Source of the DNA: Streptomyces alboniger | GTDB taxonomy: Bacteria; Actinomycetota; Actinomycetes; Streptomycetales; Streptomycetaceae | Assembly: GCF_008704395.1 (NCBI RefSeq) | Contig: NZ_CP023695.1 | Location: 5,952,001 to 6,016,000 of the forward strand | Reading direction: 5' to 3' | Length of the DNA: 64,000 nucleotides | Part shown: positions 12,386-26,207 of the stretch, one piece after another | How the letters are laid out: every line of letters starts with the position of its first letter | How positions within the stretch are numbered: position 1 is the stretch's first letter | The notes under the pieces: model-generated | Database searches by the model: none | Seen by the model: only the letters and a program-made list of their open reading frames with translations | What the model was told of the DNA's origin: nothing | Program-made: the position numbers and the translations under genes

Positions 12386-13606
12386 TTACTGCGAGCCGTA
12401 CTTCTTGCTCATCATGTCGTAGACCTGCTCGGCGCCCGCGCCCAGCTGCGGCCCCGCCAGCCAGGTGTTCTCGGCCGGGCCGATGGACGTGTTCGACACG
12501 AGCCGGGTCTTGCCGCCCACCATCCGGAACCAGCCGCCGCCGGACGAGCCGCCGGTCATGGTGCAGCCGATGCGGTACATCGTCGGCAGGGAAGGCGACA
12601 GCGAGAGACGGCCCGGCTTGTCCACGCACTTGTGCATGATCAGGCCGTTGTACGGGGGAGCGGCCGGGTAACCCCAGGCGCCCATCGAGCTCACGCTCGG
12701 CGCGGACGGAGTCGAGAAATCGACATCGAGAGCGTTGCCGACGGTCTCCTCCAGGGACTTGCCGCCCTGCTCCGGCTTCACGTGCATCACGGCGTAGTCG
12801 TGCGTCGCGCCGGCGCCGCCCGTCGGACCGCCGCCGTTGATCCACTCGTTGGAGGTCGAGACCCAGTCCGCCCAGTACTGGCCGTAGGGGGCGATCTCCT
12901 GCGGGGAGGCGTTGCCCAGCTCGGCCTCGGACTTGCCGAGGTCGTTGTAGGAGGGCACGAAGGCGATGTTGCGGTACCAGCCGCCCTCCTTGCCGGCGTG
13001 CACACAGTGACCCGCGGTCCACACGAGGTTGGACTTGCCGGGGTTGCGCGGGTCCTTCACGACGGTGCCGGAGCAGACCATCGAACCCTCGGGCGAGTCG
13101 AAGAAGATCTTGCCGACGGGGGCGGCGTTGTCGTGGTACGGCGTCTTCTCGGGCTTGGCCCGGACCGGCGTCGGGTCGGGGTCGGTCGCGCCCTGGTCGG
13201 CGGCCGCGTCCTTCGTGGCGATCGTCTTCTTCGGGTCCTTGGCCTTCCGCATCCGCTCGGGCTTCCAGAGCCCGGCGATGACCGGGTTGACGAAGTCCTT
13301 GGACTCGCGCAGCCAGTCGTCCTTGTCCCAGTTCTTCCAGGCGCCGTTCTTCCACTTGTCCGGGTCGATGCCGTGCTCCTTGAGCTTGTCGGCGAGGTCG
13401 CCGGGCAGCTTGGAGTCGGCGCCCTCGGAACCGGCGTTCGAACCGTCGGTCCCCCGGGAGGCGGCGCTGTCCGACTGGCCGGACGCCTTGTCGTCGCTGG
13501 GACCGCAGGCCGTGGCGGTGAGCGCCAGGGCGGCGGCGAGCCCGGTGGCGGCGAGTGTGACGCGCCGCCCACGGCTGCGCGCGAACGGCGCACGAGTGGA
13601 ACGCAT
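12386..13606 (-). CDS. Trypsin-like serine protease lipoprotein, paralogue 1
   Basis: An exported trypsin-fold protease of 406 residues. The N-terminus has twin arginines and a lipobox-like end (GRRVTLAATG then LALTATACG), so it is probably a lipoprotein. A Ser/Gly/Asp-rich linker leads to a distinctive region of about 60 residues (LKEHGIDPDKWKNGAWKNW onward). The protease domain has His in WTAGHCVHAG, Asp in HDYAVMHV and Ser in TGGSSGGGW. It is a tandem paralogue of the next gene and shares a 58-nt identical stretch with it at 13304-13361. The start ATG follows GGGGGT. Its substrate is unknown. The long leader contains an 8-bp tandem repeat and the shared upstream element at 13775-13799. Confidence 0.88.
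   Translation of the reverse strand: MRSTRAPFARSRGRRVTLAATGLAAALALTATACGPSDDKASGQSDSAASRGTDGSNAGSEGADSKLPGDLADKLKEHGIDPDKWKNGAWKNWDKDDWLRESKDFVNPVIAGLWKPERMRKAKDPKKTIATKDAAADQGATDPDPTPVRAKPEKTPYHDNAAPVGKIFFDSPEGSMVCSGTVVKDPRNPGKSNLVWTAGHCVHAGKEGGWYRNIAFVPSYNDLGKSEAELGNASPQEIAPYGQYWADWVSTSNEWINGGGPTGGAGATHDYAVMHVKPEQGGKSLEETVGNALDVDFSTPSAPSVSSMGAWGYPAAPPYNGLIMHKCVDKPGRLSLSPSLPTMYRIGCTMTGGSSGGGWFRMVGGKTRLVSNTSIGPAENTWLAGPQLGAGAEQVYDMMSKKYGSQ
13304..13361. repeat. 58-bp segment identical to 14777-14834
   Basis: This stretch within the N-terminal region of the first protease gene is identical base for base to 14777-14834 in its paralogue, although flanking sequence differs. It encodes KWKNGAWKNWDKDDWLRE in both. 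Identity at silent positions points to recent duplication or gene conversion. Confidence 0.85.
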
Positions 13607-13846: not shown

Positions 13847-15091
13847 CTACTGGTCGGCGAACTTCTTGCTGACCGCGCCGTAGATGCCCTTGGCCTCCTT
13901 GCCCAGGCGCGGACCGGCAAGCCAGCCCGCCGTCACCGGGCCGATGGAGGTGTTCGACACCAGAGCGGGCTTGCCGTCCTGGCCCTGGGCGACCCAGCCG
14001 CCGCCGGACGAACCGCCGGTCATGGTGCAGCCGACGCGGTACATCGTCGGGTCGGGCTTGTTGAGCGAGAGCCGTCCCGGCTTGTCGGCGCACTGGAACA
14101 GCTTCTGGCCGTCGAAGGGCGGCGCCGCCGGGTAGCCGGTGGCCGTCATGGTCTTGATCTCGGGCACCGCCGGGGCGTTGAAGTCCACCGGGAGCGCCGA
14201 ACCGACGGTCTCCTCCAGCGACTTGCCCTCGCTGCCCTTCTCGGGCTTCACGTGCATGACGGCGAAGTCGTACGGCGCGCCCTTGCCGCCCGTCGGGCCG
14301 CCCTGCTCGATCCACTGGTCGGAGGTCTGCGCCCAGTCGCCCCACCAGACGCCGTACGGAGCCACCTCTTCCTTGGGGGCGTTCCGCAGTTCCTCGGCCG
14401 ACTTGCCGCTGTTGTTGTACGAGGGGACGAAGACCATGTTGCGGTACCAGCCGCCCTTGGCGCCCGCGTGCACGCAGTGGCCCGCGGTCCACACCATGTT
14501 CGACTTGCCGGGGTGGGCCGGGTCCTTGACGACGGTCGCGGAGCAGACCATCGAGCCCTCGGGGCCGTCGAAGAAGAGCTTTCCGGACTCGGCGGCCCGG
14601 CCGTGGTAGGGCGCCTGCACGGCGGCCGCCTCCACGGGCTTGGGCGTCGGGTCGGTGACACCCTGGTCACCGGAGATGTCGTTGTCGTCGACGCTCCGGT
14701 CCGGATTCTTGTCGGCGTCCCGCATCCGGTCCGGGTCCCACAGGTCCTCGATGATCGGGTTGACGAAGTCCCCGGCCTCGCGCAGCCAGTCGTCCTTGTC
14801 CCAGTTCTTCCAGGCGCCGTTCTTCCACTTGTCCAGGTCGATCCCGTGCTCCTTGAGCCGGTCCTGGAGGTCCGCCGGGATCTGGATCTTGTCGTCGCCG
14901 GAGCCGCCGCCCTCGCTGTCACCGGGCTGCGCCGACGACGAGTCGCCGCCGGCGTTGTCCTCGCTGGGACCGCAGGCCGTGGCGGTCAGTACGAGCGCCG
15001 CGCCGAGCGCCACCGCGGCCGCCACGGGGGAGGTTCTGGTGCGCGCGCTCCTCCCACTGCGGGCGGTGAAGAGCGGACGTATGGGTCGCAT
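13847..15091 (-). CDS. Trypsin-like serine protease lipoprotein, paralogue 2
   Basis: A 414-residue paralogue of the preceding protease. The start ATG at 15091 (MRPIRPLFTARSGR) has a strong ribosome-binding site AGGGGGAA; the longer reading from 15220 runs through the promoter region. A hydrophobic segment ends in the lipobox-like LTATACG. The conserved lysine/tryptophan-rich region (KWKNGAWKNWDKDDW) precedes the catalytic domain with His in WTAGHCVHAG, Asp in YDFAVMHV and Ser in MTGGSSGGGW. Gene order and shared sequence indicate tandem duplication. It is divergent from the siderophore operon. Confidence 0.88.
   Translation of the reverse strand: MRPIRPLFTARSGRSARTRTSPVAAAVALGAALVLTATACGPSEDNAGGDSSSAQPGDSEGGGSGDDKIQIPADLQDRLKEHGIDLDKWKNGAWKNWDKDDWLREAGDFVNPIIEDLWDPDRMRDADKNPDRSVDDNDISGDQGVTDPTPKPVEAAAVQAPYHGRAAESGKLFFDGPEGSMVCSATVVKDPAHPGKSNMVWTAGHCVHAGAKGGWYRNMVFVPSYNNSGKSAEELRNAPKEEVAPYGVWWGDWAQTSDQWIEQGGPTGGKGAPYDFAVMHVKPEKGSEGKSLEETVGSALPVDFNAPAVPEIKTMTATGYPAAPPFDGQKLFQCADKPGRLSLNKPDPTMYRVGCTMTGGSSGGGWVAQGQDGKPALVSNTSIGPVTAGWLAGPRLGKEAKGIYGAVSKKFADQ
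14777..14834. repeat. 58-bp segment identical to 13304-13361
   Basis: Second copy of the identical segment shared by the tandem protease genes, in the same orientation, 1473 bp from the first. Confidence 0.85.
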
Positions 15092-15475
15092 CGTGAGATT
15101 CCCCCTGGGCCTCGAAAAACGTTCAATGTGCTGGACATCCGGGCGCTGCGCACCCGTCGTACACCGGCACGGAACCCCCACGACCGGGGGAGCGGCGTAC
15201 CTGTCGCTGGTGAACGGCACCCCACACTATGCCGGTGCCGTTGGGGACGGCCGACGGAAGGGCAACGGTTCCGTCACGGCAAGGATCTTCCGACAACCCG
15301 TGATCCTCCGGGGGTGGCGTCGTTGGTACGTACGGGGGAGTCGCGGCCTGCGTTCATCTCCCCTGCCAACTCGTCGGCGCGGGTGGCCACATGAGGCTCC
15401 TAGGGGTCCTCCTCGGAGGCAGACGGAGCCGCACGGGACCGGACGCGCCCGTCCACAGCGGGAGGACCAACAGTC
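15092..15475. promoter_or_regulatory. Divergent promoter region, protease 2 / siderophore operon
   Basis: A 384-bp region without a convincing gene. It contains the second copy of the shared protease element at 15225-15249 (CACTATGCC, 7 bases, TTGGGGACG), 134 bp upstream of the protease start, and GGGAGGACC as ribosome-binding site for the aminotransferase. I looked for the 19-bp actinobacterial iron box (TTAGGTTAGGCTAACCTAA) that siderophore operons usually carry and did not see one. Confidence 0.6.
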
Positions 15476-17227
15476 GTGGCTGTGACCGAGCCTGCGCCCG
15501 CGGCGGTGTCCGCAGAGTGTTCTCCACCGCATACCGGGCACTCCAGGCGGACCGAGCAGACCGGGCAATCCGGGCACCCTGTGCACCCTGGGCAGTCCGG
15601 GCAGACCCCTGTCGACGGGCCCCCGGCCGGGAGCTCCGCACACTCCTCGGCACAAGAGGGGATTCTGAGGCGCCAGTCGGCACGCGAGTCGGCGGCGCGC
15701 ACCTACGCGCGAGCACTGCCGATCGTGCCCGTGCGGGCGCGTGGCATGACCATCGAGGGCGCCGACGGGCGCCGCTACCTCGACTGCCTCTCGGGCGCGG
15801 GGACCCTGGCCCTCGGCCACAACCACCCCGTGGTGCTCGAAGCGATCAGGAAGGTCCTCGACTCGGGGGCACCCCTGCACGTCCTCGACCTGGCCACGCC
15901 CGTCAAGGACGACTTCACCACCGAGCTGTTCGGCACGTTGCCGCGCGGCCTCGCCGAGCGTGCGCGGATCCAGTTCTGCGGCCCCGCCGGGACGGACGCC
16001 GTGGAGGCCGCGCTGAAACTGGTCCGCGCTGCCACCGGCCGCGAGGGGCTGCTGGCCTTCACCGGCGCCTACCACGGCATGACGGCCGGGGCGCTCGAAG
16101 CATCCGGCGGCGCACAGGACGTTCGCGTCGCGCGCCTCCCTTATCCACAGGACTACCGCTGCCCGTTCGGTCTCGGCGGCGCGAACGGCGCCGAACTCTC
16201 CGCCCGCTGGACCGAGAGCCTCCTCGACGACACCAAGTCGGGCGTACCGGCCCCGGCGGGCATGATCCTCGAACCGGTCCAGGGCGAGGGCGGTGTCCTC
16301 CCGGCGCCCGACGCCTGGCTGCGCCGGATGCGTGAGATCACCGCCGCGCGCGGAATCCCGCTCATCGCGGACGAGGTACAGACGGGTGTCGGACGTACCG
16401 GCACTTTCTGGGCCGTCGAACACAGCGGCGTCGTGCCGGACGTGATGGTGCTCTCCAAAGCGATCGGCGGCAGCCTTCCGCTAGCCGTCGTGATCTACCG
16501 CGACGACCTCGACGTCTGGCCTCCCGGCGCCCACGCGGGCACCTTCCGCGGCAACCAGCTCGCCATGGCGGCGGGCGCGGCGACCCTTGCCTACGTCCGT
16601 GAGAACGGCCTCGCCGAACGCGCCGCCGTCCTCGGCGCCCGCATGCTCGCCCAGCTCCGCTCCCTGGCCGCGGACCACCCGTGCGTGGGCGAGGTGCGAG
16701 GCCGGGGCCTCATGCTGGGCGTCGAACTGGTCGAGGCCGCAGAGCCGGTCGGCCCCGCCGAGCCTGTAGACCCCGCCGGCTTCAGCGGCCCCGTCGGCCC
16801 CATCGGTCCCACCGGCTTCAGCGGCCACGTCGATGCCGTCGAGCCGGGGCCCGAGGGCACCTCGGGCACCAGCCGAGAGGCATCCGACCGCGGCAGCGCC
16901 CACGGGAGCCCCGCCGGCCCAGGGGCCGCCGACCAGGCCTCGGCCGGCCGCGAGGACGCGGACAGGGCGGCCACCCCGTACGATCCCCTCGCCGGTGGCG
17001 CGGGGATCCTGCCGAGCACCACCCGCCCCCGCCCACCCGCACCCCAACTGGCCGCCGCCGTGCAGCGCGAGTGCCTGCGTCGCGGGCTCATCGTCGAACT
17101 CGGCGGCCGCCACTCCAGCGTCGTACGTCTCCTCCCTCCCCTGACCATCACCGACGAACAGGCGGCCGCGGTCCTCGACCGCCTCGCCGACGCGCTGGCC
17201 ACGGCGGCGCGTGCCCACCACGGATAG
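15476..17227 (+). CDS. Class III aminotransferase, diaminobutyrate-2-oxoglutarate type, siderophore operon
   Basis: A PLP-dependent class III aminotransferase resembling those that make 2,4-diaminobutyrate for siderophores (RhbA-like). Key features are the start of the fold at RALPIVPVRARGMTIEGADG, FTGAYHGMTAGALEASGG, ADEVQTGVGRTG and the PLP lysine Lys328 in MVLSKAIGGSLP. At 583 residues it is some 130-150 longer than usual. There is a His/Gly/Gln-rich N-terminal extension of about 60 residues, and an insertion at about 420-520 with collagen-like GPVGPIGPTG and Ala/Gly/Asp-rich sequence. GTG start with ribosome-binding site GGGAGG. First gene of four that run together. Confidence 0.9.
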   Translation: MAVTEPAPAAVSAECSPPHTGHSRRTEQTGQSGHPVHPGQSGQTPVDGPPAGSSAHSSAQEGILRRQSARESAARTYARALPIVPVRARGMTIEGADGRRYLDCLSGAGTLALGHNHPVVLEAIRKVLDSGAPLHVLDLATPVKDDFTTELFGTLPRGLAERARIQFCGPAGTDAVEAALKLVRAATGREGLLAFTGAYHGMTAGALEASGGAQDVRVARLPYPQDYRCPFGLGGANGAELSARWTESLLDDTKSGVPAPAGMILEPVQGEGGVLPAPDAWLRRMREITAARGIPLIADEVQTGVGRTGTFWAVEHSGVVPDVMVLSKAIGGSLPLAVVIYRDDLDVWPPGAHAGTFRGNQLAMAAGAATLAYVRENGLAERAAVLGARMLAQLRSLAADHPCVGEVRGRGLMLGVELVEAAEPVGPAEPVDPAGFSGPVGPIGPTGFSGHVDAVEPGPEGTSGTSREASDRGSAHGSPAGPGAADQASAGREDADRAATPYDPLAGGAGILPSTTRPRPPAPQLAAAVQRECLRRGLIVELGGRHSSVVRLLPPLTITDEQAAAVLDRLADALATAARAHHG

Positions 17228-17324
17228 CCAAGACGGACCCGGACGGCGCCCAAGGCCATGAGACGCCGGGCGTGCCCGGCCCCGTCGCCACACGGAGCCC
17301 GAACAACCTCACAAGGAACCCCTC

Positions 17325-19343
17325 TTGAACGCCACCCCCGCATCCGAAGGCCGCCCCGACCCCCACGCCCCAGGCGCGTGCGGCACGCAATCCTCACCGG
17401 TGGCGGAGTCCGGTACGGTCCCCCGGCAGAAGGGTGGCGGCCAAGAGGCCGAGCACCTGCGCGGCGCGTCCACGGACCTCCTGGAGCACCCCGACCCGCA
17501 CATCGCCGCGCAGGCGGCGGCCGTAGAGAACCTCCTGCGCTGCTGGGCCAGGGAGAACGACCTCCCGGCACCGGACCACGGCCCCCTGCGCATCCCCCTC
17601 GACGCGAGCGGCACGGCCCTGCTCGTCCCCGTCCACTACTGGTCGGCCACCGGCTGGCACCGCTTCGGCCTGCCCTACCTGGAGGACGGCCCGACGAGCG
17701 CCCCACCCGTCGACGCGGTCACCGTCGCCGCGCTCCTCCGCCGCGAAACGGCCCGGCGCGACGCGGAGCCGAGGGCCGACGACTCGGAAGCGGGGGTCGG
17801 GCCGGGAGCCGGACCCGAGCCGGAAGCGGGGGCCGAGCCATGGGAGGCGACCGCCCCGGAGGGGGCGACGCCCTCGGCCGGGTCCGTGGACGGCGCGGAC
17901 CTGCTCGGCCGGGTCGCCGACTCGGTCCGCCGGACCGCCACGTTCATCGCCGACCGGCGCGAGCGCCCCGACGACGAGCCCGACCTCTTCCTCGCCGCCG
18001 AACAGTCCCTGCTTCTCGGGCACCCCCTGCATCCGACCCCCAAGAGCCGCGAGGGCCTGTCCGACGCCGAGGCCCGCCTCTACTCACCGGAGTTGCGCGG
18101 CAGCCTCGCGCTGCACTGGCTGGCCGTCGACCGCTCCGTGCTCGCCTTTGACTCGGCGTGGACCGAGCGAGGTCGCGCTGTCCCGGCGGACCAGCTCACC
18201 GCCCGCTTGGCGGGAGCGGAACTGCCGCTGCCGGACGGGCGCGTCGCCCTCCCGGCCCACCCGTGGCAGATCCGCGAGCTGCGGCACCGCCCCGAGGCGG
18301 CCGAACTCCTCGACGCGGGACTCCTCCAGGACCTCGGCCCGCACGGCACCCCCTGGCACCCCACCTCCTCCGTACGCACCCTCTACCGCACCGGCGCGGC
18401 CGCCATGCTCAAGCTCTCCCTCGGCCTGCGCATCACCAACTCCCGCCGGGAGAACCTCCGTAAGGAACTCCACCGTGGCGTCGAGGTGCACCGCCTGCTG
18501 CGCAGCGGCCTCGCCGAGCGGTGGCAGTCGGCCCACCCCTGCTTCGACGTGGTCCGCGACCCCGCCTGGCTCGCCGTCAACGACCGTGACGGCGCCCCCG
18601 TGGCCGGGCTCGACGTCATGATCCGGCACAACCCCTTCGGCCCCGGCGACGACGCCACCTGTGTCGCCGGACTCGTCTCGCCCAGGCCGTCGGCGCTTCC
18701 CGGCTGCCAGGAGTGGCGTCTGATGCGCTCCCGGCTCGCTGAAACCGTCACCAGGCTGGCCGGGCGGACGGGGCGCCCCCGAGGGGCCGTCGCCACCGAG
18801 TGGTTCCTGCGCTACCTGGAAACCGTCGTCCGCCCAGTGCTGTGGCTCGATAGCGAGGCGGGCGTCGCCCTGGAGGCACACCAGCAGAACACGATCCTCC
18901 TGCTCGACCCCGACGGCTGGCCCGTGGGCGGCCGCTACCGCGACAACCAGGGCTACTACTTCCGGGAGTCCCGGCGCGCCGAGCTGGACCGACAGCTCCC
19001 CGGCATCGGCCGGCACAGCGACACCTTCGTCTCCGACGAGGTGACCGACGAGCGGTTCGCCTACTACCTCGGCATCAACAACGTCCTGGGCCTGATCGGA
19101 GCCTTCGGCGCCCAACGCCTCGCCGACGAGCGGCTGCTGCTCGCGGCCTTCCGGCGCTTCCTCGGCGACGTCGCCTCCGGACCCGACAGGCTGCGCACCT
19201 CGCTGCCCGCGACGCTGCTCGACTCACCCGTACTGCGGTGCAAGGCCAACCTGCTGACCAGACTGCACGGGCTCGACGAACTGGTCGGCCCGGTCGACAC
19301 CCAATCCGTCTACGTCACCATCGCCAACCCCCTTCATCCCTGA
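17325..19343 (+). CDS. IucA/IucC-family NIS siderophore synthetase 1
   Basis: An NRPS-independent siderophore (NIS) synthetase that joins a carboxylate, typically citrate or a derivative, to an amine or hydroxylamine using ATP. The 672-residue protein shows the family motif GHPLHPTPKSREGL near residue 228 and PAHPWQIREL, and later EAHQQNTILLLDPDGWPVGGRYRD is recognisable in two parts (EAHQQN and RYRDNQGYY). The C-terminus (IANPLHP) is FhuF-like. An acidic Gly/Pro/Glu-rich insertion spans about residues 144-192. It starts with TTG after AAGGAA, 97 bp after the aminotransferase. Likely the first condensing enzyme. Confidence 0.93.
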   Translation: MNATPASEGRPDPHAPGACGTQSSPVAESGTVPRQKGGGQEAEHLRGASTDLLEHPDPHIAAQAAAVENLLRCWARENDLPAPDHGPLRIPLDASGTALLVPVHYWSATGWHRFGLPYLEDGPTSAPPVDAVTVAALLRRETARRDAEPRADDSEAGVGPGAGPEPEAGAEPWEATAPEGATPSAGSVDGADLLGRVADSVRRTATFIADRRERPDDEPDLFLAAEQSLLLGHPLHPTPKSREGLSDAEARLYSPELRGSLALHWLAVDRSVLAFDSAWTERGRAVPADQLTARLAGAELPLPDGRVALPAHPWQIRELRHRPEAAELLDAGLLQDLGPHGTPWHPTSSVRTLYRTGAAAMLKLSLGLRITNSRRENLRKELHRGVEVHRLLRSGLAERWQSAHPCFDVVRDPAWLAVNDRDGAPVAGLDVMIRHNPFGPGDDATCVAGLVSPRPSALPGCQEWRLMRSRLAETVTRLAGRTGRPRGAVATEWFLRYLETVVRPVLWLDSEAGVALEAHQQNTILLLDPDGWPVGGRYRDNQGYYFRESRRAELDRQLPGIGRHSDTFVSDEVTDERFAYYLGINNVLGLIGAFGAQRLADERLLLAAFRRFLGDVASGPDRLRTSLPATLLDSPVLRCKANLLTRLHGLDELVGPVDTQSVYVTIANPLHP

Positions 19344-19380
19344 GGAACATGCCCCACCTCTTCTGAACAGGAGCGACCCC

Positions 19381-20151
19381 GTGCCTCCCACCGATGCGAG
19401 CACCGACGCCGGGAGCGAACCCGCGGCCTCCGGAGCCGACGGCGCAGACACCCTCGATCTGCGCCTGCCCGACGAGCTGTTCGCCCTGCTCGCCGAGCGC
19501 GAAGAGCGCGTGCCGTCGGCAGCTCACATCGGCCACGGGGAGCGCCCACCGGACCAGGCCACGAGCGCCGTCACGGCGGACGACCTCCTCGGCGGCGTCG
19601 GAGAGTGGGGGCCGACCACCACCGCCGCCGGGGTCTTCCAGCTCGTACCCGTCCGCCTCGAACGCGACCTCCCGCTGATCAGCCGATGGATGAACGACCC
19701 CGCCGTGGCCGCCTTCTGGGAACTCGCGGGACCCGAAGCCGTCACGGAGGCCCACCTGCGTCCCCAGCTCGACGGAGACGGACGCAGCGTGCCCTGCCTG
19801 GGCGTGCTGGAGGGCATGCCGATGAGCTACTGGGAGATCTACCGGGCCGACCTCGACCCACTGGCCCGTCACTACCCCTCGCGCCCGCACGACACCGGAA
19901 TCCACCTCCTCATCGGCGGTGTCGTCAACCGCGGCAGGGGCCTCGGCACCTCGCTGCTCCGGGCCGTCGCCGATCTCGTACTCGACCACCGCCCCGCGTG
20001 CGCACGCGTCCTCGCAGAACCCGACCTGCGCAACACCCCCTCCGTCTCCGCATTCCTGAGCGCCGGCTTCCGCTTCTCCGCCGAAGTGGACCTGCCCGGC
20101 AAAAGGGCGGCGCTCATGGTCCGTGACCGGGCCCTGCGCGCAGTGCTCTGA
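19381..20151 (+). CDS. IucB/RhbD-like GNAT acyltransferase of the siderophore operon
   Basis: A 256-residue GNAT-fold acyltransferase of the siderophore AlcB/IucB/RhbD type, which acylates a hydroxylamine to give the hydroxamate. The core runs from residue about 80 (FQLVPVRLERDLPLISRWMN) through YWEIYRADLDPLARHY, a family hallmark, and GIHLLIGGVVNRGRGLGTSL to SAGFRFSAEVDLPGKRAAL. The first 75 residues are acidic and poorly conserved. GTG start with ribosome-binding site AGGAG, 38 bp after the first synthetase. Because no N-monooxygenase lies in the operon, its true acceptor is open: it could use an amine, or a hydroxylamine made elsewhere. Confidence 0.9.
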   Translation: MPPTDASTDAGSEPAASGADGADTLDLRLPDELFALLAEREERVPSAAHIGHGERPPDQATSAVTADDLLGGVGEWGPTTTAAGVFQLVPVRLERDLPLISRWMNDPAVAAFWELAGPEAVTEAHLRPQLDGDGRSVPCLGVLEGMPMSYWEIYRADLDPLARHYPSRPHDTGIHLLIGGVVNRGRGLGTSLLRAVADLVLDHRPACARVLAEPDLRNTPSVSAFLSAGFRFSAEVDLPGKRAALMVRDRALRAVL

Positions 20152-20219
20152 CCCGATCACTCTCCGTCACTCATGGAACGTCGCTCGCCCCGATCCGGTT
20201 CCCTCCCTGAGGAGTCCCC

Positions 20220-22127
20220 GTGCCGAATCCATCCGCAAGCCCGAGCTGCCACCCCTCCACCGCGCTCTACGACCCGCCCGAACTGACTCAGGACCGATGG
20301 CGCGAGGCCGGACGCCGTCTGCTCGCCAAGATGGTCGGCGAATTCGCGTACGAGGAGATCATCCTGCCCGTACCGGTCATAGGGGGCGAGACCGGCTCGT
20401 ACCGGCTCACCCTCGAATCGCCCGAGACCGACGGGACCACCGCATCGGCCGAGCGGCCCGCATCGGCGGCGCCCTCCGCACGCGCCGGTGACGAAAGCGG
20501 CCCCTGTCTCACCTTTCGCGCCCACCGCGGCTCGTACGGAGGCTGGCACGTGGACCCCGCCAGCCTCGCCCTGGCCCAGGGCGGCTCGACCGCCCTCCCC
20601 TTCAGCGACCCGATCCGATTCCTCGCGCTCGCCCGCCGGACCCTGGGGCTCGACGGCGCCACCCTCGGCCACCTGATCCGCGAACTCACCGTCACGCTCT
20701 GCGCCGATACCCGGATCGACCACAGCGCGCTCGCCGCGACGCAGCTCGCCGACCTCGGTTACGCGGAACTGGAGGGGCACCAGATCGGTCACCCCTGGCT
20801 CGTCCTCAACAAGGGGCGCATCGGTTTCTCCGCGAGCGACACCGACCGCTGGGCGCCCGAGGCCCGCCGTTCCACCACGCTCCCGTGGATCGCCGTCCAC
20901 ACCGACCTCGCGGTCTACCGAGGTATCACCGGACTGCACACCGCCCAGCGGCTCTACGCCCGCGAGCTGACCACCGCCACCCAGGAGTCCTTCGCGGGCT
21001 TACTCCGCGCGCGCGGGCTCGACCCCCAGGAGTACCTCTACCTCCCGGTCCACCCCTGGCAGTGGGACGAGATCGTGCTGCCGCTCTTCGCTCCGTCCGT
21101 CGCAGCGAACGCCATCGTCCCGCTCGGCAGCGACGGCGACCTGCGCCTTCCCCAGCAGTCCATCCGTACGTTCCTCAATGTGTCCCGCCCCGACCGGCAC
21201 ACCGTGAAGCTGCCGCTGTCGGTCCTCAACACACTGGTGTGGCGGGGCCTCCCGACAGAGCGCACGGTCGCGGCGCCGGCCGTTACGGCCTGGATGCACG
21301 CGCTGCGCGACTCCGACCCCTTCCTGCGCGACGAGTGCGGGGTCATCCTGCTCGGCGAGGTGGCATCGGTGGCCGTCGAACACCCGGTCTACGACGGGCT
21401 GCCCGAAGTCCCGTACCAGTACAGGGAACTGCTCGGCGCCATCTGGCGCGAGCCGATCACCCGCCACCTGGCTCCCGACGAACGTGCACGCACCCTGGCC
21501 GCACTGCTGCACGTCGACCCGGACGGCAAGGCCTTCGTCGCGGAACTCGTCGAACGCTCGGGACTGACCCCCTCCGTCTGGCTGCGCAGGCTCTTCGCCG
21601 CCCTGCTGCCCCCGCTGCTGCACTTCCTCTACCGCTACGGAACGGTGTTCTCCCCCCACGGGGAGAACGCCATCGTCGTCTTCGACGACAAGGACGTGCC
21701 GGTCCGGCTCGCGGTGAAGGACTTCGTGGACGACGTGAACGTCAGTGCCACGCCGCTTCCCGAGCACGACTCCATGCCGGACGACGTGCGCGACGTCCTG
21801 CTCACCGAGCCTCCCGGATTCCTCACCCAGTTCATCCACTCCGGGCTCTTCGTAGGGGTCTTCCGCTATCTGGCGCCGCTGTGCGAGGAGCAACTGGGCG
21901 TTCCGGAGGCCGATTTCTGGTCCGCCGTACGCGCCGAGATCCTCCGACACCAGGCACGCGCTCCGGAGCTGAAGGAGCGGTACGAGATGTTCGACCTGCT
22001 CACACCACGTATCGAGCGGCTGTGCCTCAACCGCAATCGCCTCCTCCTCGATGGGTACCGCGACCGCCCCCAGCGCCCCCACGCCGCTGTGCACGGGACC
22101 GTGCCCAACCCTCTCCATCAGCCTTGA
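20220..22127 (+). CDS. IucA/IucC-family NIS siderophore synthetase 2
   Basis: A second NIS synthetase of 635 residues, different from the first and probably performing the second amide bond. Visible motifs include LEGHQIGHPWLVLNKGRIGF (the nucleotide-loop region), LPVHPWQWDEIVLPLF, LPQQSIRTFLNVSRPDRHTVKLPLS in two stretches, SPHGENAIVVFDD and a conserved C-terminal NRNRLLLDGYRDRPQ. The N-terminus has a short Ala/Ser/Thr-rich insert around residues 70-95. GTG start after GAGGAG, 68 bp from the acyltransferase. With two synthetases and one acyltransferase the product should be a bis-amide of a citrate-like core. Confidence 0.93.
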   Translation: MPNPSASPSCHPSTALYDPPELTQDRWREAGRRLLAKMVGEFAYEEIILPVPVIGGETGSYRLTLESPETDGTTASAERPASAAPSARAGDESGPCLTFRAHRGSYGGWHVDPASLALAQGGSTALPFSDPIRFLALARRTLGLDGATLGHLIRELTVTLCADTRIDHSALAATQLADLGYAELEGHQIGHPWLVLNKGRIGFSASDTDRWAPEARRSTTLPWIAVHTDLAVYRGITGLHTAQRLYARELTTATQESFAGLLRARGLDPQEYLYLPVHPWQWDEIVLPLFAPSVAANAIVPLGSDGDLRLPQQSIRTFLNVSRPDRHTVKLPLSVLNTLVWRGLPTERTVAAPAVTAWMHALRDSDPFLRDECGVILLGEVASVAVEHPVYDGLPEVPYQYRELLGAIWREPITRHLAPDERARTLAALLHVDPDGKAFVAELVERSGLTPSVWLRRLFAALLPPLLHFLYRYGTVFSPHGENAIVVFDDKDVPVRLAVKDFVDDVNVSATPLPEHDSMPDDVRDVLLTEPPGFLTQFIHSGLFVGVFRYLAPLCEEQLGVPEADFWSAVRAEILRHQARAPELKERYEMFDLLTPRIERLCLNRNRLLLDGYRDRPQRPHAAVHGTVPNPLHQP

Positions 22128-22167: not shown

Positions 22168-24138
22168 ATGACGAAGCCCTCCCTCCCCGAGCTCCTGCAC
22201 GCCGCCGTCACCGCTGTCGGCGGCACGGAGCGCCCTGGCCAGGTGTCCATGGCCGAGACCGTCGCCGAGGCGATCGACGACGGCTCCCACCTGCTCGTCC
22301 AGGCCGGCACCGGCACGGGCAAATCCCTCGGCTACCTCGTGCCGGCCCTGGCGCACGGGGAGCGCGTGGTGGTCGCCACCGCCACGCTCGCCCTCCAGCG
22401 CCAGCTCGTGGAGCGGGACCTGCCGCGCACCGTGGAGGCCCTCCATCCGCTGATGCGCCGCCGCCCCCAGTTCGCGATGCTCAAGGGCCGTTCGAACTAC
22501 CTGTGCCTGCATCGGCTCCATGAAGGCGTGCCCCAGGAAGAGGAGGAGGGCCTCTTCGATCAGTTCGAGGCGGCCGCGCCCACCAGCAAGCTGGGGCAGG
22601 ACCTCCTGAGGATGCGGGACTGGGCGGACGAGACCGAGACGGGCGACCGCGACGATCTCACCCCCGGGGTCTCCGACCGTGCCTGGTCCCAGGTCTCCGT
22701 CTCCTCCAGGGAGTGCCTCGGCGCCTCGAAGTGCGCCTATGGGGCGGAGTGCTTCGCCGAGGCGGCCCGCGAGCGCGCCAAGCTCGCCGACGTCGTCGTC
22801 ACGAACCACGCGCTGCTGGCCATCGACGCCATCGAGGGCGCCCCCGTCCTTCCCCAGCACGAGGTGCTGATCGTGGACGAAGCCCATGAGCTGGTGTCCC
22901 GCGTCACGGGCGTGGCCACGGGAGAGCTGACCCCCGGGCAGGTCAACCGCGCGGTGCGCCGCGCGGCCAAGCTTGTGAACGAAAAGGCGGCGGACCAGCT
23001 CCAGACCGCTTCCGAGGGCTTCGAGCGGTTGATGGAGCTGGCCCTGCCGGGCCGCCTGGAGGAGATCCCCGAAGACCTCGGGTACGCGCTGATGGCCCTG
23101 CGTGACGCCGCGCGCTCGGTCATCACCGCGCTCGGCTCCACCCGGGACAAGTCGGTCCAGGACGAGGACGCGGTCCGCAAGCAGGCGCTCGCCTCCGTGG
23201 AGTCGATCCACGACGTGGCGGAGCGCATCACCAACGGCTCCGAATGGGACGTCGTCTGGTACGAGCGGCACGACCGCTTCGGGGCCTCCCTGCGCGTGGC
23301 GCCGATGTCCGTGTCGGGCCTCCTCCGGGAGAAGCTCTTCGCCGACCGCTCGGTCATCCTCACCTCCGCCACGCTCAAGCTCGGCGGCGACTTCAACGGC
23401 GTCGGGGCATCGCTCGGCCTGGCCCCCGAGGGCACCGAGTCCGAGGACGCACCGCAGTGGAAGGGCCTCGATGTCGGCTCCCCGTTCGACTACGGAAAAC
23501 AGGGCATCCTGTACGTCGCCAAGCACCTGGCCCGGCCCGGGCGCGAGGGCACGCGCAGCGACATGCTCGATGAGCTGGCCGAGCTGATCGAGGCGGCAGG
23601 CGGGCGCACCCTCGGCCTGTTCTCCTCCATGCGTGCCGCTCAGAGCGCCGCCGAGGAGCTGCGGGGCCGCCTGGACATGCCGATCCTCCTTCAGGGCGAG
23701 GAGACCCTGGGCGAGCTGATCAAGGGCTTCGCGGCCGACGCGCGGACCTGCCTCTTCGGGACGCTCTCGCTCTGGCAGGGCGTGGATGTGCCCGGCCCCA
23801 GCTGCCAGCTGGTGATCATAGACAAGATCCCGTTCCCGCGTCCTGACGACCCGCTGATGAGCGCCCGCCAGAAGGCGGTCGACGAGGCCGGCGGCAATGG
23901 GTTCATGGCGGTCGCGGCCACGCATGCGGCTCTTCTGATGGCGCAGGGCGCGGGTCGTCTCGTACGAGCGTCCGGGGACCGCGGCGTCGTGGCGGTCCTG
24001 GACCCCAGGCTGGCCACCGCGCGCTATGGAAGCTATCTGCGGGCTTCGCTGCCCGACTTCTGGTACACGACGGACCGTAATCAGGTGCGCCGCTCCCTGT
24101 CCGCGATCGACGCGGCGGCGAAGACGGCCGAGGCGTAG
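22168..24138 (+). CDS. dinG: DinG/XPD-like ATP-dependent DNA helicase with Fe-S cluster
   Basis: A superfamily 2 helicase of the DinG/YoaA/XPD type that unwinds DNA 5' to 3' and is linked to DNA repair. The 656-residue protein has Walker A QAGTGTGKSLGYL, a DEAH box (VDEAHEL), and the C-terminal motifs TLSLWQGVDVPG and MAQGAGRLVRASGDRGVV. Four cysteines that could hold a 4Fe-4S cluster occur in NYLCLHR, SRECLGASKC and GAECF. The ATG is 40 bp after the siderophore operon. It is convergent with lexA, separated by a perfect hairpin. A role in damage response fits the neighbour but no LexA box was seen at its start. Confidence 0.93.
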   Translation: MTKPSLPELLHAAVTAVGGTERPGQVSMAETVAEAIDDGSHLLVQAGTGTGKSLGYLVPALAHGERVVVATATLALQRQLVERDLPRTVEALHPLMRRRPQFAMLKGRSNYLCLHRLHEGVPQEEEEGLFDQFEAAAPTSKLGQDLLRMRDWADETETGDRDDLTPGVSDRAWSQVSVSSRECLGASKCAYGAECFAEAARERAKLADVVVTNHALLAIDAIEGAPVLPQHEVLIVDEAHELVSRVTGVATGELTPGQVNRAVRRAAKLVNEKAADQLQTASEGFERLMELALPGRLEEIPEDLGYALMALRDAARSVITALGSTRDKSVQDEDAVRKQALASVESIHDVAERITNGSEWDVVWYERHDRFGASLRVAPMSVSGLLREKLFADRSVILTSATLKLGGDFNGVGASLGLAPEGTESEDAPQWKGLDVGSPFDYGKQGILYVAKHLARPGREGTRSDMLDELAELIEAAGGRTLGLFSSMRAAQSAAEELRGRLDMPILLQGEETLGELIKGFAADARTCLFGTLSLWQGVDVPGPSCQLVIIDKIPFPRPDDPLMSARQKAVDEAGGNGFMAVAATHAALLMAQGAGRLVRASGDRGVVAVLDPRLATARYGSYLRASLPDFWYTTDRNQVRRSLSAIDAAAKTAEA

Positions 24139-24241: not shown

Positions 24242-25027
24242 TCATACCCGCCGCAGCACCGCCACGACCTTGCCGAGGATCGTCGCCTCGTCGCCGGGGA
24301 TCGGCTGGTACGCGGAGTTGTGCGGGAGCAGCCAGACGTGCCCGTCCTCGCGCTTGAAACGCTTGACCGTGGCTTCGCCGTCCAGCATGGCGGCCACGAT
24401 GTCGCCGTTCTCGGCGACGGGCTGGCGGCGCACCGTGACCCAGTCGCCGTCACAGATCGCGGCTTCGATCATGGAGTCACCGACGACCTTCAGTACGAAG
24501 AGCTCGCCGTCGCCCACCAGCTGCCGGGGGAGAGGGAAGACGTCCTCCACCGACTCCTCGGCGAGGATCGGGCCACCGGCCGCGATGCGGCCGACGAGCG
24601 GGACGTACGAAGCGGCCGGCTTGCCGGTGGTGTCGGTGGGCTGGCTGCTCGGCTGGTCCGAGCCGCGCACCTCGTAGGCCCGCGGGCGGTGCGGGTCGCG
24701 GCGGAGGAAGCCCTTGCGCTCCAGAGCCATCAGCTGATGGGCGACCGAGGAGGTGCTGGAGAGGCCCACCGCCTGACCGATCTCCCGCATGGACGGTGGG
24801 TAGCCGCGCCGCTGCACGGAGTCCCGGATGACCTCGATCACCCGGCGTTGCCGGTCGGTGAGTCCTGAGCTGTCGGCGCGGATGCCTGGAGGTCGCCCTG
24901 GCAGGGAGCGCGTGGGCTTGGGCCCCTCCTGGTTCGTGGCTGCGTCATTCATGGCATGCACCGGCTCGAGTCGGCTCTGGGAGCGGTCCTGGGCAGTGAT
25001 GGTGGCGCTGTCTGCGGTGGTGGTCAC
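24242..25027 (-). CDS. lexA: LexA repressor of the SOS response
   Basis: LexA represses DNA-repair genes and cleaves itself when RecA filaments form. From GTG 25027 the protein has 261 residues. The winged-helix DNA-binding domain covers [19 protein letters not shown] to [11 protein letters not shown] (about 57-110). The self-cleavage site is Ala150-Gly151 in GRIAAGGPI, the nucleophile is Ser185 in VVGDSM and the general base is Lys222 in EATVKRF. The disordered N-terminal extension of about 50 residues is usual in actinomycetes. A LexA box lies 69 bp upstream, consistent with autoregulation. It is divergent from nrdR. Confidence 0.97.
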
Positions 25028-25095
25028 GTCGGTCGGCCCCTCTCGAGATGTTCTCTCCCTAGCTAGCCAACGGTAGTTGCTTTCGAAAGGTTGCG

Positions 25096-25111
25096 CCAAA
25101 CACACGTTCGA
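25096..25111. promoter_or_regulatory. LexA box (SOS box) upstream of lexA
   Basis: CCAAACACACGTTCGA matches the actinobacterial SOS consensus TCGAACnnnnGTTCGA at 10 of 12 fixed positions, with the right half perfect. It is 69 bp upstream of the lexA start, so LexA autoregulation is expected. Confidence 0.65.
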
Positions 25112-26068: not shown

Positions 26069-26207
26069 TCGGCCGATCGGCCGGCCGGCGGCAAACCAGA
26101 CCTGTTGCGGGTCTCCTTCTGTGATGCCCCGCAACGCCAGAAACACATCCGTGTCACGGGAAGATCGTGGCACTTCAGGGCGTTTTAGCCTGAAACAGGG
26201 AGGCGGC

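What the first reader, a model, noticed from the sequence alone, without database searches (positions are those of the whole stretch)
15476..22127. NIS siderophore operon lacking decarboxylase and monooxygenase
The four genes match RhbA (aminotransferase), RhbC/RhbF-type synthetases and RhbD/IucB (acyltransferase). Rhizobactin-type pathways also need a diaminobutyrate decarboxylase and an N-monooxygenase, and neither is here; the next gene is a DNA helicase. Either those steps are supplied from elsewhere, or this operon makes a different product, for example one built on diaminobutyrate itself or with an amide in place of a hydroxamate. I recall a similar orphan operon in S. coelicolor without an assigned product.
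Basis: partly seen in the sequence, partly recalled or inferred. Interest (0 to 1): 0.7.

Follow-up and report, generated by a model that had tools for sequence, protein, structure and literature searches.

The report
Siderophore operon with its genes split
This Streptomyces operon looks incomplete for making an iron-binding molecule, but the two missing enzymes sit as a pair 4 million bases away, and some distant relatives keep all six genes together at this same spot, so one pathway seems to have been split in two.

Summary
15476-22127 encodes a diaminobutyrate (Dab) aminotransferase, an IucA-like type A NIS synthetase, a GNAT acyltransferase and a type C NIS synthetase; no decarboxylase or N-monooxygenase lies here and a DinG-type helicase follows. 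But the pathway is probably not incomplete. The same chromosome holds, 4.0 Mb away, a translationally coupled decarboxylase-monooxygenase pair distinct from desAB. Of 12 genomes examined from other genera of the order, five keep all six genes in one operon (aminotransferase, decarboxylase, NIS-A, acyltransferase, monooxygenase, NIS-C), four of them visibly at this helicase locus; two share the Streptomyces split; one is split differently yet complete. Among 150 Streptomyces, 129 have operon and decarboxylase, 13 operon only, 0 decarboxylase only, 8 neither. Best reading: one schizokinen-type pathway in two places. Schizokinen has been reported from Streptomyces by LC-MS, tentatively. New and open: the split loci lack the iron box that three of the five intact operons carry; the monooxygenase also occurs without the rest; and 60 of 142 operon-bearing Streptomyces show no type C synthetase at the operon.

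The parts
15476..17227 (+). Dab aminotransferase (RhbA/Dat type), gene A; GTG start preceded by GGGAGGA (15460-15466); stretch of about residues 424-512 not aligned with relatives
   Evidence: start context conserved among 67 aligned upstream regions
17325..19343 (+). Type A NIS synthetase (IucA/RhbC type), gene C; exact start codon uncertain
   Evidence: a match at E<=1e-70 in 282 of 293 genomes of the order
19381..20151 (+). GNAT N-acyltransferase (RhbD/IucB/MbtK type), gene D
   Evidence: 80 of 80 named loci
20220..22127 (+). Type C NIS synthetase (RhbF/IucC/DesD/AlcC type), gene F; found beside gene D in 18 of 80 named loci
15245..15340 (.). Conserved non-coding block upstream of the operon (divergent region with a protease gene); probable regulatory region, regulator unknown; no iron box; limits approximate
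   Evidence: alignment of 67 upstream regions; iron-box scans
22168..24138 (+). DinG/YoaA-type helicase, syntenic marker of the locus, not part of the pathway
24242..25105 (-). lexA (start codon uncertain), syntenic marker of the locus; the name is my reading of the protein, not a call
   Evidence: ORF; used as marker

Best explanation
The operon is four sixths of a schizokinen/rhizobactin-1021-type NIS hydroxamate pathway; the other two enzymes are encoded by a coupled gene pair at C1:1969884-1972768 (minus strand), about 4.0 Mb away. Proposed route: aspartate semialdehyde -> L-2,4-diaminobutyrate (gene A, here) -> 1,3-diaminopropane (decarboxylase B, distant) -> N-hydroxy-1,3-diaminopropane (monooxygenase E, distant) -> N-acyl-N-hydroxy-diaminopropane (gene D, here) -> mono-citryl amide (gene C, here) -> bis-amide, i.e. 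schizokinen or an acyl analogue (gene F, here). Shown: the genes, their families, their conservation, and their union in one operon in some outgroups. Inferred: every substrate, the acyl group, and the product.
For: (1) The pair exists in this genome, separate from desABCD; DC stop and MO start overlap as ATGA. DC's best PDB match is 2qma, named a Dab decarboxylase. MO's best are 6xbb ('Monooxigenase'; DesB by recall), 7us3 (putrescine N-hydroxylase) and 5o8p (hydroxylase of desferrioxamine biosynthesis), 303-328 bits; the next, MbtG, has 159. (2) Layout in 12 genomes of other genera: 5 have all six genes in the order A-B-C-D-E-F (helicase next to them in 4, cut off by a contig end in 1), 2 have A-B-C-D-E by the helicase, 2 have the Streptomyces split with the pair elsewhere, 1 keeps C-D-E-F with A-B elsewhere, 1 has another combined cluster, 1 has C alone. 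The same order is printed for the Haloferax schizokinen cluster dat-bdb-iucABDC. (3) 150 Streptomyces: 129 both, 13 operon only, 0 DC only, 8 neither. (4) The seven genomes with DC inside the operon have no second DC above 42% identity. (5) In the DC and MO trees the pair lies with cluster-borne copies on one side of a 100/100 branch from DesA and DesB. (6) Schizokinen reported by LC-MS in three Streptomyces strains.
Against: No co-regulation shown: no iron box at either locus and no shared upstream motif. MO occurs in 3 of 8 operon-negative genomes (G014, G032, G139) and stands without DC beside it in G051, G131, G044, G014, so E may have a second use. 13 of 142 operon-bearing genomes show no DC orthologue of the pair. 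DesA scores higher than the pair's DC on the RhbB model (433.9 vs 289.1 bits, both under the cut-off 900), so the Dab substrate is an inference. The Fisher p of 3.9e-8 ignores phylogeny. The published schizokinen strains were tied to a cluster by their authors, not, in what I read, by mutation, and I could not see which genes.
Confidence: 0.82

Rival explanations
1. The operon works alone and makes a different product from Dab itself, for example a Dab-citrate carboxylate or amide, and the distant pair belongs to something else.
For: No decarboxylase or monooxygenase hit in any of 80 named operon loci; the operon persists in some genomes where no orthologous decarboxylase was found (G010, G051, G131 among the better assemblies).
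Against: Seven outgroup genomes carry both enzymes inside the same operon; none of the 129 DC-positive Streptomyces lacks the operon; Acetyltransf_8 enzymes of siderophore pathways usually act on N-hydroxylated amines (recalled).
Confidence: 0.08
2. The missing steps are supplied by DesA and DesB of the desferrioxamine cluster, and the pair is redundant.
For: desABCD is in the same genome; DesA and the pair's DC are 41% identical, DesB and the pair's MO 43%; in G131, for example, only a DesA-level decarboxylase match was found.
Against: A separate pair is conserved in most of the genus; the trees put it with cluster-borne copies rather than with DesA/DesB.
Confidence: 0.06
3. The split pathway is a decaying relic with no working product in many strains.
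For: 60 of 142 operon-bearing Streptomyces show no type C synthetase orthologue; DC is broken into two pieces about 75 kb apart in G012; G168 keeps gene C alone; no iron box.
Against: Gene C is 64-91% identical, without stops inside, in the listed orthologue rows of the genus; 52 of the 60 genomes without type C keep the decarboxylase; PLP-lysine, FAD- and NADPH-type motifs are present here (motif names recalled); transcripts of SCO5799 and SCO5801 rise during differentiation in S. coelicolor.
Confidence: 0.04

Closest known systems
Schizokinen cluster of Haloferax volcanii (dat-bdb-iucABDC; PMC7407949, passages)
   Same: Same six enzyme types and, in the outgroup operons, the same gene order: aminotransferase, decarboxylase, NIS, acetyltransferase, monooxygenase, NIS
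   Different: There all six genes are one coupled cluster, transcribed more under iron limitation (PMC11349517, passages); here genes B and E are 4 Mb away and no iron box was found
Rhizobactin 1021 operon rhbABCDEF (operon name and order recalled; one search listed no paper with that word; chemistry in PMC6562677, passages)
   Same: Aminotransferase, two NIS synthetases and acyltransferase here; decarboxylase and N-monooxygenase in the distant pair
   Different: Two loci instead of one; no evidence here for the fatty acyl group of rhizobactin 1021
SCO5799-SCO5801 of S. coelicolor, unassigned 'putative siderophore' (passages)
   Same: Printed as aminotransferase and siderophore synthetase type genes; the three-gene layout A-C-D beside the helicase, seen in most of the named relatives, fits it
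   Different: Orthology inferred, not tested; this window has a fourth gene, the type C synthetase
Desferrioxamine cluster desABCD (L014 of this genome)
   Same: Decarboxylase, monooxygenase, acyltransferase and type C synthetase of the same families
   Different: No aminotransferase and no type A synthetase; iron box two mismatches from consensus upstream

Membership tests
Schizokinen/rhizobactin-1021-type NIS pathway | Dab aminotransferase | tested here: met
   (dat subfamily above cut-off); by sequence only
Schizokinen/rhizobactin-1021-type NIS pathway | Dab decarboxylase | tested here: inconclusive
   A decarboxylase of the right family is in the genome at a distant locus and is nearest to a Dab decarboxylase in the PDB; the RhbB model scores it under its cut-off and under DesA; substrate not assayed
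Schizokinen/rhizobactin-1021-type NIS pathway | Diamine N-monooxygenase | tested here: met
   Present in the genome at a distant locus; by sequence only, substrate not assayed
Schizokinen/rhizobactin-1021-type NIS pathway | N-acyltransferase of the IucB/RhbD type | tested here: met
   acyl donor unknown
Schizokinen/rhizobactin-1021-type NIS pathway | One type A and one type C NIS synthetase | tested here: met
   type C orthologue not found in 60 of 142 operon-bearing Streptomyces
Schizokinen/rhizobactin-1021-type NIS pathway | All genes in one operon | tested here: not met
   4+2 split here; 0 of 80 named operon loci show B or E; met in five outgroup genomes
Schizokinen/rhizobactin-1021-type NIS pathway | Iron-dependent control | tested here: inconclusive
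   No iron box within 5 mismatches at either locus; expression not measured
Schizokinen/rhizobactin-1021-type NIS pathway | Product is a citrate bis-hydroxamate | not testable with these tools
   Needs LC-MS and mutants; LC-MS reports in other strains
Desferrioxamine pathway (considered, rejected) | desABCD gene set, without aminotransferase or type A synthetase | tested here: not met
   A separate desABCD is at L014

The most novel reading that the evidence does not exclude
In Streptomyces an ancestral, iron-controlled schizokinen operon was split in two and left the iron regulon: both halves lack the iron box that several intact relatives, the combined clusters and the second decarboxylase-monooxygenase pair carry. 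It is now used in development rather than in ordinary iron starvation, and in the many species without the type C synthetase it makes a new compound, such as a mono-citryl hydroxamate or a hybrid finished by DesD.
Probability: 0.3. Interest if true: 0.75.

Novelty: new variant of a known kind. Interest (0 to 1): 0.6.

Why it matters
An operon found in 142 of 150 sampled Streptomyces, and unassigned in the model species, gets candidates for its two missing genes, a predicted product class and a clear mutant test. It warns that cluster-based genome mining can misread split pathways as incomplete. It is also a case of a biosynthetic operon taken apart in two different ways within one bacterial family, with an apparent loss of iron control.

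Tried and rejected
Shared regulation: iron-box scans and a search for common words upstream of both loci gave no shared motif; mostly GC-rich 8-mers came up, plus an RBS-like one. Rfam at gathering thresholds found only the nrdJ RNA at 26100-26184, nothing in the operon leader.

Relocation versus replacement of genes B and E: AU tests could not decide (DC of the pair held with genus g2 p=0.349; DC of all in-operon copies held together p=0.070; MO of the pair held with g2 p=0.066). The MO tree puts the in-operon copies together, apart from the pair (89/83, not starred), which leans to an older second copy.

I first took the combined clusters L057-L062 as rhb operons. They are another cluster type: no acyltransferase like gene D was found in them, and of four proteins scanned, L061 has an Orn/DAP-type decarboxylase, a GNAT of another family and a glutamine-synthetase-like protein, and L058 an MFS-like protein just under the Pfam cut-off. 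I use them only as relatives.

Exceptions told: operon without a pair-type DC in 13 of 150 (G008, G010, G028, G043, G044, G050, G051, G079, G097, G099, G114, G121, G131). Of these G028 and G097 have a contig end where DC would lie, G043, G044, G114 and G121 have a combined-cluster DC, G079 and G050 are 78% and 82% complete. Neither: G014, G027, G032, G092, G130, G132, G139, G142; of these G032 and G139 also have a contig end at the DC place. G081 was moved to DC-positive after (80% piece at a contig edge); G028 and G050 were counted operon-positive on the type C synthetase alone. The 150 genomes were sorted into sets by me from the printed rows and typed into the scripts; match lists were cut by the tool, and the search scores only the best first-look candidates of each genome. 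G010 and G012 were left out of the MO table (both 132, operon only 8, MO only 3, neither 5).

Papers: seen only as passages (PMC7324645, PMC6414726, PMC3610822, PMC3224560, PMC13136089, PMC11865988, PMC13293324, PMC6562677, PMC11349517, PMC7407949); all others only as search listings. In the listings of searches, all within the open-licence PMC library, and in those passages I saw no link between this operon and the distant pair.
Full report
WHAT IS THERE. The window is C1:5952001-6016000 of a single-contig 7.96-Mb genome; the 80 best named loci encoding its type A synthetase are all Streptomyces. The four genes are as described: Dab aminotransferase, IucA-like type A NIS synthetase, GNAT acyltransferase, type C NIS synthetase. 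Neither a PF00282 decarboxylase nor a PF13434 monooxygenase match lies in the window. Downstream follow a DinG-type helicase and a lexA-like gene (name by my reading).

THE MISSING GENES. The genome has two PF00282 places and seven PF13434 places, four of them strong. One of each is desA and desB (L014). The other decarboxylase and the second-best monooxygenase form a pair on the minus strand at C1:1969884-1972768 (L013 7885-10769), 479 and 482 aa, stop and start overlapping as ATGA. They are 41% and 43% identical to DesA and DesB. Against solved structures the decarboxylase is nearest to 2qma, named a Dab decarboxylase (240 bits), ahead of 5o5c of desferrioxamine biosynthesis (227 bits). The monooxygenase is nearest to 6xbb (DesB by recall), the putrescine hydroxylase 7us3 and 5o8p of desferrioxamine biosynthesis (303-328 bits), far ahead of MbtG and the ornithine hydroxylases (159 bits and less). 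Against this, the RhbB model prefers DesA to the pair's decarboxylase. No other gene of the pathway was seen beside the pair in the 19 kb around it; its neighbours are an NmrA-like gene, an aminopeptidase N and a 5'-nucleotidase-like gene (names by my reading).

THE LAYOUT IN RELATIVES. In the 80 named Streptomyces loci (64 with full flanks) the acyltransferase and type A synthetase are seen in 80, the aminotransferase in 69, the helicase in 78, lexA in 73, the type C synthetase in 18, and decarboxylase or monooxygenase in 0. I searched 15 of those 80 genomes for the decarboxylase: 13 of 15 have an orthologue of 72-89% identity; Streptomyces sp. GQFP and S. viridochromogenes NRRL 3413 show only a DesA-level match. 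In 12 of the 13 the monooxygenase is adjacent; the thirteenth is cut by a contig end.

One search listed 20 genomes of other genera of the order; I examined 12 of them. Five of family f3 (G166, G167, G169, G172, G173) have all six genes as A-B-C-D-E-F; in four the helicase follows within 0.1-1.4 kb, in the fifth (G172) the contig ends there. Two of genus g2 (G313, G410) have A-B-C-D-E before the helicase. None of these seven has a second decarboxylase above 42% identity. G342 and G399 have the Streptomyces arrangement, with the pair beside aminopeptidase N. G366 keeps C-D-E-F at the helicase-lexA locus and has A-B at another place. G165 has another combined cluster with no helicase in the stretch fetched, and G168 only the type A synthetase beside the helicase. 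The simplest reading is that the locus once held the whole pathway and was taken apart in more than one way while the gene set stayed complete. Whether B and E moved or were replaced by an older second copy is undecided.

CO-OCCURRENCE. In 150 Streptomyces genomes: operon and decarboxylase 129, operon only 13, decarboxylase only 0, neither 8 (Fisher p 3.9e-8, not corrected for descent). Leaving out the four genomes whose contig ends where the decarboxylase would lie gives 129, 11, 0, 6. The monooxygenase is looser: of 148 genomes, both 132, operon only 8, monooxygenase only 3, neither 5, and in four genomes it stands at its usual place without the decarboxylase. That suggests E has, or had, another use.

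THE LAST STEP VARIES. A type C synthetase orthologue (66-90% identity, the window's own included in the count) is in 82 of 150 genomes; 5 more have only a combined-cluster copy. Of 142 operon-bearing genomes 60 show no orthologue (those 5 among them), and 52 of the 60 keep the decarboxylase; some are fragmented assemblies. In 60 named loci the gap from acyltransferase to helicase is too short for it (median 258 bp against 2.1 kb where it is present). Since five outgroup operons have it in place (56-58% identity), loss is the simpler reading. Who makes the second amide bond there (the type A enzyme, DesD, nobody) is unknown. In the window's own genome the gene is present.

REGULATION. The iron-box consensus (recalled) is found two mismatches off before desA, within three mismatches before three of five complete operons (L183, L191, L199), in seven of eight Streptomyces combined clusters (the eighth at four) and before both second-copy pairs (L177, L178). 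Shuffles of the window, L183 and L178 give none. It is absent, at four mismatches, from the window, L013, the other split operons and pairs (L186, L188, L194, L195, L196), the two five-gene operons and two of the five complete ones. In 67 operon upstream regions (of 82 tried) and 37 pair upstream regions (of 39 tried; a few genomes occur twice) the best match is seven mismatches off, no better than shuffled sequence. In S. coelicolor microarrays SCO5799 and SCO5801 are up at 48 and 72 h (log2 +1.3 to +1.8) while desA is down (-3.7, -3.2) and the listed coelichelin genes are down. This fits a pathway outside the iron regulon, but it is one data set and rests on inferred orthology; loss of the box in some intact operons too means that the split need not be its cause.

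PRODUCT AND LITERATURE. The enzyme set predicts a citrate bis-hydroxamate of 1,3-diaminopropane, schizokinen if the acyl group is acetyl; the acyltransferase's best PDB match is MbtK, so another acyl group is possible. Schizokinen was reported by LC-MS in Streptomyces anulatus RLA103 (PMC11865988, passages) and tentatively in two sediment isolates (PMC13136089, passages), each attributed by the authors to one cluster; I could not see which genes. The Haloferax volcanii cluster of the same six enzymes in the same order is the closest described case (PMC7407949, passages); its product too was proposed rather than proven in what I read. SCO5799-SCO5801 remains a 'putative siderophore' cluster in the passages read.

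VERDICT. Observation right; the gap is real for the operon but probably not for the genome. The most likely mechanism is a two-locus schizokinen-type pathway. The chemistry is known; the genus-wide split, the variable last synthetase and the missing iron box are the new parts.

Noticed in passing
L177 8016-10863, L178 7923-10839: A second stand-alone decarboxylase-monooxygenase pair (60-64% identical to the first), with an iron box upstream, fetched from two Streptomyces genomes (G005, G066); other matches of this kind; partners unknown.
   Followed up: partly
L057-L062, L154, L155: A different combined NIS cluster in some Streptomyces: Dab aminotransferase, Dab-type decarboxylase, type A synthetase, monooxygenase and type C synthetase together; in the proteins scanned also an Orn/DAP-type decarboxylase, a glutamine-synthetase-like protein, another GNAT (L061) and an MFS-like protein (L058). 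Iron box nearby in all eight (1-4 mismatches).
   Followed up: partly
L192 6531-7259 and L193 6968-7351: In G012 the distant decarboxylase is broken into two pieces about 75 kb apart near the end of the contig.
   Followed up: no
L145, L147, L148, L153: The monooxygenase stands at its usual place without the decarboxylase in G051, G131, G014 and G044; a separate role for it is possible.
   Followed up: partly
window 15245-15340: Conserved non-coding block between the operon and a divergent protease gene; regulator not identified.
   Followed up: partly
window 26100-26184: nrdJ RNA (RF03034, 70.6 bits).
   Followed up: no
window 12386-13606 and 13847-15220 (minus strand): Two similar trypsin-like proteases (my reading) in tandem next to the operon; a relative of the nearer one is seen there in 68 of 80 named loci.
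   Followed up: no
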